A DNA stretch of 33,702 bases from Anaerolineaceae bacterium (lineage in GTDB: Bacteria; Chloroflexota; Anaerolineae; Anaerolineales; Anaerolineaceae): assembly GCA_003563055.1 (NCBI GenBank), contig PWSY01000117.1, positions 1 through 33,702 of the forward strand. Reading direction: 5' to 3'. Below are positions 11,574 through 18,163 of this stretch, piece by piece. The notes below the pieces were generated by a model. The model was not told the origin of the DNA. It saw nothing but the letters and a program-made list of their open reading frames with translations, and did no database searches. How positions within the stretch are numbered: the first letter of the stretch is position 1; every line of letters starts with the position of its first letter. The position numbers and the translations under genes were made by a program.

Positions 11574-11670
11574 AATTAGCGAGAAACCCAGTGATTATTA
11601 ACCAAACAATCATTGAACGTTAATCTTGTTGTTATAAACTGAGTCTGGATATATTAAAGAATAATCCTAA

Positions 11671-11723: not shown

Positions 11724-11749
11724 CAAACCTAACATCATAAAGGAAACAA

Positions 11750-15003: not shown

Positions 15004-15980
15004 GGGGTATCAACCTGGCTGGCCCATGCCCGTTCACGCATATACCATTCCACCAGGTGGGTCACACCCTCCGCCAGGTCCACTTGAGGTGTCCAGCCCA
15101 GGAGCGCTTTGGCTCTTGTGACGTCAGCCTGGTTGGTATGCACATCAGCCAGGTGAAAAGGCTGGTGTTTAACATGGGCAGGTTTACCGATCCGTTCTTC
15201 CAACATCCGGATCAGGTGGTTAATGGTAATAACCTCATGCCCCCCTAAATTGATGATTTCATAACCAACCGGCTTGAGCGCCTGGATAGTACCTCGTGCA
15301 ATATCGTCCAGGTAAGTAAACCCTCGCGATTGCTCACCATCACCATTAACAATCACTGGTCTTCCTTCAGCAATCCACTGGCAAAAGCGAAACATGACCA
15401 TATCCGGCCGCCCTGCTGGGCCATAAACGGTGAAGTAACGTAATACGGTCACATCGATGTCATAAAGATGATGATAGGCATGCGCCATGGCCTCAGCCCC
15501 TTTTTTGCTGGCCGCATAGGGTTGGAGCGGGTGGTCACTGTCATCTGTTTCTTTGAAGGGCGGTTCTGACACCTCGGCATACAAACTTGAAGTCGAAGCC
15601 AGTACTAATTTCTGAATATCCTTCCGACGGCAAAGTTCCAGCAGGTTGAGTGTGCCGGTCATGTTGGTGTCCAGGTAAACCCAAGGGTCCGTCAGGCTGG
15701 TACGAACGCCCGCTCGGGCAGCCAGGTTGATAACCCCGACAACCTCGCCAGGCAGCCAATCTGCCATTGCATCTATGGCCGCACGATCAGCGATATCTAA
15801 CTTGAGGAAGTGAAAACCTGGCAGCAATCTCAAGCTGTCCAGACGATAATCCTTGAGCCGGATATCGTAAGCGTCATTCATATTGTCAACGCCATAGACG
15901 CTGTGCCCTGCTTCCAGAAGAAATGACGCCACGCGAAAAGCAATGAAACCGGCTGTGCCTGTCAGAAGATAATTCGCCAT
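15000..15980 (-). CDS. NAD-dependent nucleotide-sugar epimerase (UDP-glucuronate epimerase-like SDR)
   Basis: YLLTGTAGFIAFRVASFLLEAGHSVYGVDNMNDAYD, YAASKKGAEAMAHAYHHLYDIDVTVLRYFTVYGPAGRPDM, FTYLDDIARG. Confidence 0.92.
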   Translation of the reverse strand: MANYLLTGTAGFIAFRVASFLLEAGHSVYGVDNMNDAYDIRLKDYRLDSLRLLPGFHFLKLDIADRAAIDAMADWLPGEVVGVINLAARAGVRTSLTDPWVYLDTNMTGTLNLLELCRRKDIQKLVLASTSSLYAEVSEPPFKETDDSDHPLQPYAASKKGAEAMAHAYHHLYDIDVTVLRYFTVYGPAGRPDMVMFRFCQWIAEGRPVIVNGDGEQSRGFTYLDDIARGTIQALKPVGYEIINLGGHEVITINHLIRMLEERIGKPAHVKHQPFHLADVHTNQADVTRAKALLGWTPQVDLAEGVTHLVEWYMRERAWASQVDTP

Positions 15981-17299
15981 CAGAGCCTGACCACCTTCGG
16001 CGAGACTTTGCCTGCCTGCCCCAGCGCATTGCGGGTGTCCACCACCAACTGAGCAGAGGCGAGGATCGTCGGGTAGTCATAATCACTATGATTGGTAATG
16101 ATGGCTACACAATCAGCCTTTCGTACTTCAGGAAGTAAGTCCGTAACCGAGACCAGAGCCAGGTTATCATGGTTTAATTGGGGAATAAACGGGTCATGGT
16201 ACACCACATCTGCCCCTTTTTCCTGCAGCAAGTGAATGATGTCCAGGGCGGGTGACTCACGCAGGTCATCAATATCTGGCTTGTAGGCAACCCCCAGCAC
16301 CAGCACCCGGCTGCCATTGAGCGGTTTCCTGTGCAAATTCAAGGCATCCTGAATCTTCCCCAGGGCATAGCGCGGCATGTTGGTATTGATCTCAGATGCC
16401 AGTTCAATAAAACGCGCATTGTAATTGAGAGATCGCAGCTTCCACGAAAGATATAATGGGTCAATGGGGATACAATGCCCCCCCAGGCCAGGGCCAGGTG
16501 TAAACTTCATAAATCCAAAGGGTTTGGTGGCGGCCGCATCGATCACTTCCCAAACATCCACATCCAGGCGATCGCACATGATCGCCAGTTCATTCACCAG
16601 GCCAATATTGATCATCCGGAAGGTGTTTTCAAGCAGCTTGGCCATCTCAGCTACCTCACAGGTGGACACGGGCACGACTGTGTCGAGAGCTTTTTCGTAC
16701 CAAGCAGCTGCGATTTCACCGCAATCGCTTGTGATCCCGCCAAGCACCTTGGGGGTGTTGATTGTTGTCCAATCTTCCCTGCCCGGGTCAACCCGCTCCG
16801 GTGAAAAAGCCAGGAAGAAATCCTCGCAAACCGTCATACCGCTGACCGATTCCAGCGCTGGCAAGACCATCTCCCGGGTGGTGCCGGGATAGGTGCTGGA
16901 TTCGAGCACAACCACCATACCAGGATGTAAAAAGGGTGCAAGGGATTCGCTGGCAGATGCGATGAAAGAAAGATCCGGGTCACCCGTTTTCCGCAGGGGT
17001 GTGGGTACACAGATTGAAACGGCATCCACATCTTTCAGGGCGCCATAATCTGTGCTGGCAGTCAATTTTCCGGCGGCAACCAGCGCCTTGACATCTGCAG
17101 ATTCCACATCCAGGATATAACTCTCACCCTGGTTGATGCAGGCGACTTTTTCCGCATCGGGATCTATACCGACCACATCAAAACCCGCCTGAGCAAAAAC
17201 AACCGCCAGGGGAAGTCCCACATATCCGATACCGACCACACCAATCCGGGCAGTCCGCTTTTCCAATTTATTGAGCAATGCTTGTTTTATAGTATCCAT
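15980..17299 (-). CDS. Nucleotide sugar dehydrogenase (UDP-GlcNAc/ManNAc dehydrogenase, WbpA/WecC type)
   Basis: IGVVGIGYVGLPLAVVFAQAGFDVVGIDPD, VVLESSTYPGTTRE, SPERVDPGR, GPGLGGHCIPIDPLYLSWK, VLGVAYKPDIDDLRESPAL. Confidence 0.94.
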   Translation of the reverse strand: MDTIKQALLNKLEKRTARIGVVGIGYVGLPLAVVFAQAGFDVVGIDPDAEKVACINQGESYILDVESADVKALVAAGKLTASTDYGALKDVDAVSICVPTPLRKTGDPDLSFIASASESLAPFLHPGMVVVLESSTYPGTTREMVLPALESVSGMTVCEDFFLAFSPERVDPGREDWTTINTPKVLGGITSDCGEIAAAWYEKALDTVVPVSTCEVAEMAKLLENTFRMINIGLVNELAIMCDRLDVDVWEVIDAAATKPFGFMKFTPGPGLGGHCIPIDPLYLSWKLRSLNYNARFIELASEINTNMPRYALGKIQDALNLHRKPLNGSRVLVLGVAYKPDIDDLRESPALDIIHLLQEKGADVVYHDPFIPQLNHDNLALVSVTDLLPEVRKADCVAIITNHSDYDYPTILASAQLVVDTRNALGQAGKVSPKVVRL

Positions 17300-17351
17300 T
17301 TAATAGTCCCAAATCATATGATTAGTTCAGAAGAATTATTTTATCATAAAC

Positions 17352-17454
17352 TGTAACTACTCAGGCTGCAGGGGAATCGGGGGGGGTTGTGTGCCGGCTC
17401 CGCTGGCACACAACCCCCCCACCTCTTCACCAGCAGGATTGGCTGAGTAGTAAC
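17352..17454. repeat. Palindromic interspersed repeat, copy 2 (MITE-like) carrying an internal about 19-bp G-rich hairpin
   Basis: TAACTACTCAG (17354-17364) ... CTGAGTAGTAA (17443-17453); inner stem GGGGGGGTTGTGTGCCGGC/GCTGGCACACAACCCCCCC; flanked by CATAAAC at 17345-17351 and 17455-17461. Confidence 0.78.
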
Positions 17455-17473
17455 CATAAACTTAAAAATCAAC

Positions 17474-18163
17474 CTATTTATCAAGTTGTTCTTCAAAAAG
17501 ACTGAGCTGTTCTGTTCCGTTTTCTTCCCCAGGAGCATCGTCTTCATCTTTGTGAGTCATAGCAGCTAACCCGAGGTTCGTTTGTCGGGTTTTCTTGGCC
17601 TGAGAAATCAGACCTGGCAATTTTGAAAAATCTGCTTTGATGACAGCCCGCAGAGATGGTTGATGCAACGCCGCTGCCGGGTGGTACATTGGCACAACCA
17701 TCCTGCCACTTAACCAAAATGACTTTCCATGAATCGCACTGATTTTGCCATTTTGGATGTAATAACCCATCGATATCCGACCCAAGGTGACGATCACATC
17801 CGGATTAATCGTGGCTATTTGCCTGTCAAGATAGGTTTTACAGGCAGTTAACTCCTCGGTATTGGGGTCACGATTGCCAGGCGGTCGGCACTTGACAACA
17901 TTGGTAATAAAAACGTCTCCCCGGTTCATACTTGCTTCACCCAATAACTCGTCCAGAAACTTACCAGCTGCCCCTACAAAAGGCAGACCCTGCTCATTCT
18001 CATGGAAACCAGGGCCTTCTCCGATGAACATAATTGATGTGTACGGATCGCCAACGCCGGGAACGGCGAGTTTACGTGAATGGTGTAGTGCACATCGTTT
18101 GCAGACAGATGCCTGTGCAGCAATTTCTTTCAAGATATCTTCGGGTGTCAAAAGGACCTCCAA
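17474..18163 (-). CDS. Uracil-DNA glycosylase, type 4 (Fe-S)
   Basis: CKRCALHHSRKLAVPGVGDPYTSIMFIGEGPGFHENEQGLPFVGAAGKFLDELL...FITNVVKCRPPGNRDP...VPMYHPAAAL. Confidence 0.95.
   Translation of the reverse strand: MEVLLTPEDILKEIAAQASVCKRCALHHSRKLAVPGVGDPYTSIMFIGEGPGFHENEQGLPFVGAAGKFLDELLGEASMNRGDVFITNVVKCRPPGNRDPNTEELTACKTYLDRQIATINPDVIVTLGRISMGYYIQNGKISAIHGKSFWLSGRMVVPMYHPAAALHQPSLRAVIKADFSKLPGLISQAKKTRQTNLGLAAMTHKDEDDAPGEENGTEQLSLFEEQLDK

What the first reader, a model, noticed from the sequence alone, without database searches (positions are those of the whole stretch)
17345..17461. MITE-like element copy 2 with flanking 7-bp direct repeat and an internal strong hairpin
Terminal inverted repeats GTAACTACTCAG / CTGAGTAGTAAC enclose about 100 bp, and CATAAAC occurs immediately on both sides (17345-17351, 17455-17461), like a target-site duplication. 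Inside lies a separate, nearly perfect 19-bp stem GGGGGGGTTGTGTGCCGGC-TCC-GCTGGCACACAACCCCCCC that copy 1 lacks. The ends are conserved while the interior differs, as expected for a non-autonomous mobile element or a cargo-carrying REP-like family. No transposase is in the window.
Basis: partly seen in the sequence, partly recalled or inferred. Interest (0 to 1): 0.7.

Follow-up and report, generated by a model that had tools for sequence, protein, structure and literature searches.

The report
IS66-type MITE with a palindromic core
This is one of about 64 recovered copies of a tiny jumping-DNA element in an Anaerolineaceae genome; it has no gene of its own and its ends and 8-bp target duplications match single-gene IS66 (ISBst12-group) insertion sequences, so it is an ordinary kind of element, though its inner hairpin seems to flip its loop unusually often.

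Summary
The element spans window 17353-17454 (102 bp), with 12-bp terminal inverted repeats GTAACTACTCAG/CTGAGTAGTAAC and a direct repeat that is 8 bp, not 7: CATAAACT at 17345-17352 and 17455-17462. The same genome has 87 exact copies of the 12-bp end, against 0 for a reversed control. I recovered 64 paired elements (43-108 bp); 49 have 8-bp flanking repeats with at most 1 mismatch (about 1 expected by chance). Twelve of 13 orthologous loci in the same genus lack the insert; the thirteenth has its own, independent insertion.

A one-gene IS66 insertion sequence from the same genus carries the same ends. Cyanobacterial IS66 elements have GTAACTACTCAG ends and perfect 8-bp duplications, and ISDge4 (ISBst12 group), seen to transpose, has near-identical ends and an 8-bp repeat. 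So this is a MITE of the IS66/ISBst12 group, presumably moved by a transposase not found in this incomplete genome.

The inner hairpin is confined to this family. Its arms change in concert (53 double against 16 single changes), and loop orientation is essentially random across related copies. That fits replication template switching better than an RNA function. New member of a known kind.

The parts
17345..17352 (.). left copy of the 8-bp target-site duplication, CATAAACT
   Evidence: statistics over the family
17353..17454 (+). whole 102-bp MITE, long (hairpin) class
   Evidence: absent from 12 of 13 orthologous sites
17353..17364 (+). left terminal inverted repeat GTAACTACTCAG
   Evidence: 87 exact genomic copies; identical to ends of IS66 elements
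17380..17420 (.). inner hairpin: arms 17380-17398 and 17402-17420, loop TCC at 17399-17401
   Evidence: family-specific
17443..17454 (-). right terminal inverted repeat CTGAGTAGTAAC (one mismatch)
17455..17462 (.). right copy of the 8-bp target-site duplication, CATAAACT
   Evidence: degraded duplication 11663-11670 / 11725-11732 if one end base was lost

Best explanation
The element is a MITE (gene-less miniature transposon) of the IS66 family, ISBst12 group, the branch with a single transposase gene. A DDE transposase encoded by an ISBst12-group insertion sequence recognises the 12-bp ends in trans and inserts the element into an 8-bp, A+T-rich target, which is duplicated. Shown: the ends, the 8-bp duplications, the many copies, the empty sites, and IS66 elements carrying these ends. 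Inferred: mobilisation in trans, and that the transposase source was lost from, or is not assembled in, this genome. The inner palindrome belongs to the long class of the family; its concerted arm changes and frequent loop inversions are best read as DNA-level turnover (template switching or recombination between the arms) rather than RNA function, which is inferred.
For: 87 exact ends against 0 in the control. 64 paired elements with conserved ends and variable cores, 49 with 8-bp flanking repeats at no more than one mismatch, chance about 1. Twelve orthologous empty sites and one independent insertion. Same-genus G007 has a 1.56-kb one-gene element with these ends whose 487-aa protein is an IS66 transposase (PF03050 3.9e-42; NF033517 9.3e-90). 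Cyanobacterial relatives L173, L178, L181, L186 have these ends (at most one mismatch) and perfect 8-bp duplications. ISDge4 of the ISBst12 group transposed in the laboratory with near-identical ends and an 8-bp repeat (PMC12898284). Other genomes of the order have short elements with the same ends, unrelated cores and perfect 8-bp duplications.
Against: No IS66 transposase is detectable in this genome or in G002, G011 and G016, which also have many copies. Similarity to the known IS66 elements is limited to about the terminal 12 bp, so the direct parent has not been found. Activity today is not shown.
Confidence: 0.93

Rival explanations
1. A REP/BIME-like repeat spread by a Y1 (RAYT) transposase, with the hairpin as the recognised structure.
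For: Short intergenic hairpin repeats in many copies, and three Y1-type transposase genes exist in the genome.
Against: 8-bp target duplications in 49 of 64 copies; no copy of the end within the fetched surroundings of any Y1 gene; about half of the copies lack the long hairpin.
Confidence: 0.02
2. The hairpin, or the whole element, is kept by selection as a structured RNA or a bidirectional transcription terminator, so that the ends and the interior co-vary as one functional unit.
For: Strong stem, 53 both-sided against 16 one-sided changes; almost wholly intergenic.
Against: No Rfam match; no T-run and no terminator hit; G-T (6) is not favoured over A-C (11) among stem mismatches; loop orientation is random with respect to relatedness; about half of the copies lack the long hairpin. 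A secondary effect on nearby genes is not excluded.
Confidence: 0.08
3. The loop inversions are an artefact of metagenome assembly of a repeated palindrome (this rival concerns only the hairpin claim, not the MITE assignment).
For: The genome is a fragmented, 75.5% complete assembly, and several contigs end in or near elements.
Against: Near-identical copies with opposite loops also occur in the separate assembly G011 (L270 TTC, L278 GAA). The hairpin, about 41-47 bp, is shorter than ordinary reads (inference).
Confidence: 0.2

Closest known systems
IS66 family, ISBst12 group (ISDge4, PMC12898284; one-gene IS66 elements of Anaerolineaceae and cyanobacteria)
   Same: 12-bp ends GTAACTACTCAG or nearly so, and 8-bp target duplication
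   Different: Those elements are about 1.3-1.6 kb and carry the transposase gene; this one is 102 bp without a gene, and shares little beyond the terminal 12 bp
Bacterial MITEs such as MITEPsy1 (PMC3189936)
   Same: About 100 bp, inverted ends, target duplication, no gene
   Different: MITEPsy1 relates to another family (marked IS5? there) and makes a 4-nt duplication; the present family has IS66-type ends, 8 bp, and a flipping inner palindrome
Hairpins shaped by replication template switching (PMC8794818)
   Same: Compensatory arm changes and inverted loops, as described for RNA-gene hairpins
   Different: Here inside a mobile element, with loop orientation close to random among copies

Membership tests
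MITE | short element without a gene, with terminal inverted repeats | tested here: met
   43-108 bp, 12-bp ends, no room for a gene
MITE | target-site duplication of fixed length | tested here: met
   8 bp in 49 of 64 copies with no more than one mismatch
MITE | many dispersed copies and empty sites | tested here: met
   64 elements recovered; 12 orthologous empty sites
MITE | ends match an autonomous element of a known transposase family | tested here: met
   IS66 elements in the same genus and elsewhere
MITE | moved in trans by that transposase | not testable with these tools
   needs a transposition assay
IS66 family, ISBst12 group | ends beginning GTAA | tested here: met
   GTAACTACTCAG; IS66 examples
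IS66 family, ISBst12 group | 8-bp target duplication | tested here: met
   also in the autonomous elements
IS66 family, ISBst12 group | single IS66 transposase gene in the element with these ends | tested here: met
   met for the related autonomous elements L124 and L123; the MITE itself has none by definition
IS66 family, ISBst12 group | an autonomous partner in the same genome | tested here: not met
   none found in this 75.5% complete genome; incompleteness leaves it open
REP/RAYT repeat | no target duplication; repeat flanks a Y1 (RAYT) gene | tested here: not met
   duplications present; no repeat near the three Y1 genes

The most novel reading that the evidence does not exclude
The inner palindrome of this MITE is rebuilt continually by template switching, or by recombination between its arms, fast enough that loop orientation has lost all memory of ancestry. 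The family would then be a natural recorder of palindrome mutagenesis, and a warning that covariation in bacterial repeats can arise without RNA selection.
Probability: 0.5. Interest if true: 0.5.

Novelty: new member of a known kind. Interest (0 to 1): 0.35.

Why it matters
It ties an abundant intergenic repeat of an Anaerolineaceae genome to a transposase group (IS66/ISBst12) for which my searches of the held literature found no described MITE. The same ends, with unrelated cores and perfect 8-bp duplications, recur in other genomes of the order, so the pattern is general there. The hairpin gives many parallel copies in which palindrome turnover (compensatory changes, loop flips) can be counted, and it shows that compensatory changes alone need not mean a functional RNA.

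Tried and rejected
A full-length insertion sequence with these ends in the fetched parts of this genome: two candidate spans (L063 681-1968, L048 9277-10003) lack matching flanks at their outer ends and hold no IS66 gene; they are neighbouring separate elements. IS66 transposase in the own genome by family and by protein: none. REP/RAYT origin: rejected. Rfam RNA family: none. Intrinsic terminator or sigma-70 promoter at the element by consensus scan: none. The inner hairpin as an independent mobile unit: all 30 strong hairpins in 690 kb are of this one sequence type or lie in elements, 25 inside recognised elements and 5 at other places with the same kind of sequence. Literature search for the 12-mer gave only an unrelated hit. 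The specific right end CAGGGCTGCCTGAGTAGTTAC was found in no other genome of 250 sampled from the order, so it did not lead to the parent element.

Full report
What is there. Window 17353-17454 is a 102-bp element with 12-bp inverted ends, GTAACTACTCAG and CTGAGTAGTAAC, flanked by the 8-bp direct repeat CATAAACT (17345-17352, 17455-17462) and containing a hairpin at 17380-17420. The element folds far better than shuffled sequence as single-stranded DNA (z = -8.4). It lies between a nucleotide-sugar dehydrogenase gene (15980-17299, minus strand) and a family-4 uracil-DNA glycosylase gene (17474-18163, minus strand).

Copies. The window is contig 236 of a 2.47-Mb, 75.5% complete genome in 256 contigs. 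The 12-mer end occurs 87 times exactly, against 0 for the reversed control. I fetched most of these places and recovered 64 paired elements in this genome, 43-108 bp long. They fall roughly into three classes: 43-68 bp without the long hairpin, 73-76 bp mostly with a short G/C stem, and 98-108 bp with the long hairpin. Ends and subterminal sequences are shared; cores differ. Of the 64, 28 have exact and 49 have at-most-one-mismatch 8-bp flanking repeats. On the 63 counted first, shuffled partners give 1.0 on average and at most 5 in 1000 trials, and lengths other than 8 give almost none; the duplicated targets are 73% A+T. Fifty of 56 copies fall between open reading frames although reading frames cover 86% of the sequence (reading frames were picked mechanically). 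Related elements occur in two other species of the genus: G002, 25 elements, 13 with good duplications; G011, 15 elements, 5 with good duplications.

Empty sites. Thirteen other genomes of the genus have the orthologous gene pair with both flanks alignable. In 12 the element is absent, and the alignment runs on at the insertion point just after the conserved ATTTTATCATAA (one of them, G003, has an unrelated stretch in the same gap). G011 instead has its own element, with different internal sequence, nearer the dehydrogenase gene. This is direct evidence of insertion rather than an ancestral structured RNA.

Which transposase. Ends starting with GTAA together with an 8-bp duplication are the marks of the IS66 family (established knowledge; IS66 ends beginning GTAA in PMC12888890). 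This genome has no detectable IS66 transposase. In the same genus, G007 (Anaerolineaceae bacterium 46_22) has a 1.56-kb element at the start of a contig: GTAACTACTCAG, one 487-aa gene, then the inverted GTAACTGCTCAG. The protein matches PF03050 (3.9e-42) and NCBIfam NF033517, IS66 family transposase (9.3e-90). A second case, L123 from another family of the order, has exact ends on both sides, though its flanks do not match each other. Further relatives of this protein were fetched. Among them L173, L178, L181 and L186, all cyanobacteria, have these ends with at most one mismatch and perfect 8-bp duplications, and many others have both ends intact. ISDge4 of Deinococcus geothermalis, assigned to the ISBst12 group and seen to transpose, has ends GTGACTACTCAGCA and GTAACTGCTCAGCA and made the 8-bp repeat CCTCGATG (PMC12898284). 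The assignment to the IS66 family, ISBst12 group, is therefore well supported. That such an enzyme moves the element in trans is inferred, and the direct parent, sharing subterminal sequence, was not found.

Other genomes. With the same 12-bp ends but unrelated cores, short elements with perfect 8-bp duplications appear in other genomes of the order and family (L098, L100, L111, L116, L117, L119), and one genome holds more copies of the end than this one (G056: 153). The specific right end of the present family was seen in no other genome of 250 sampled.

The hairpin. In 690 kb of this genome there are 30 perfect hairpins with stems of 15 bp or more; 25 lie in these elements, and the other 5 have the same kind of sequence at places where the paired ends were not recognised. 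Over 33 long elements 627 of 645 stem pairs are Watson-Crick, and the mismatches show no preference for G-T (6) over A-C (11). Against the commonest pair, 53 cells changed on both sides and 16 on one side. The 3-base loop occurs in both orientations relative to the asymmetric ends, 16 pyrimidine-type and 16 purine-type; on a tree built without the loop at least 12 changes are needed, about as many as for shuffled labels (mean 11.0). L060 and L071 have identical ends and opposite loops. The same is seen in the separate G011 assembly (L270, L278). Loop inversion together with compensatory arm change is what replication template switching is described to leave (PMC8794818). I therefore read the hairpin's covariation as DNA-level turnover, with assembly error as the main caution and recombination between the arms as an equal alternative route. 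The element carries no terminator-like T-run and no Rfam match.

Consequence at this site. The left duplication overlaps the conserved motif whose minus strand reads TTATGATAAAAT, which resembles an extended -10 promoter (TG-n-TAAAAT) for the dehydrogenase gene; the motif is present in the relatives aligned, some with one change. The element replaces whatever lay directly upstream. An effect on expression is possible but untested.

Verdict. This is an ordinary kind of element, apparently undescribed as far as my searches of the held literature show, and its transposase group can now be named. Its most interesting feature is the frequent loop inversion of the inner palindrome.

Noticed in passing
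window 17338-17349 (minus strand): Conserved TTATGATAAAAT, like an extended -10 promoter, upstream of the nucleotide-sugar dehydrogenase gene in the aligned species of the genus; the MITE sits directly upstream of it.
   Followed up: partly
L150 (G011), intergenic region between the same two genes: An independent insertion of a related MITE in the orthologous intergenic region, at a different position.
   Followed up: partly
G056 and G041 (same order): 153 and 61 exact copies of the same 12-bp end, in MITE families with unrelated cores.
   Followed up: partly
L076 189-327: Two short-class elements lie about 20 bp apart, each with its own 8-bp duplication.
   Followed up: no
L007 (C12) and L034 4899-5000, L046 17740-17786: Two elements in L034 and L046 fall wholly inside mechanically called reading frames and may supply coding sequence or mark disrupted genes.
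   Followed up: no
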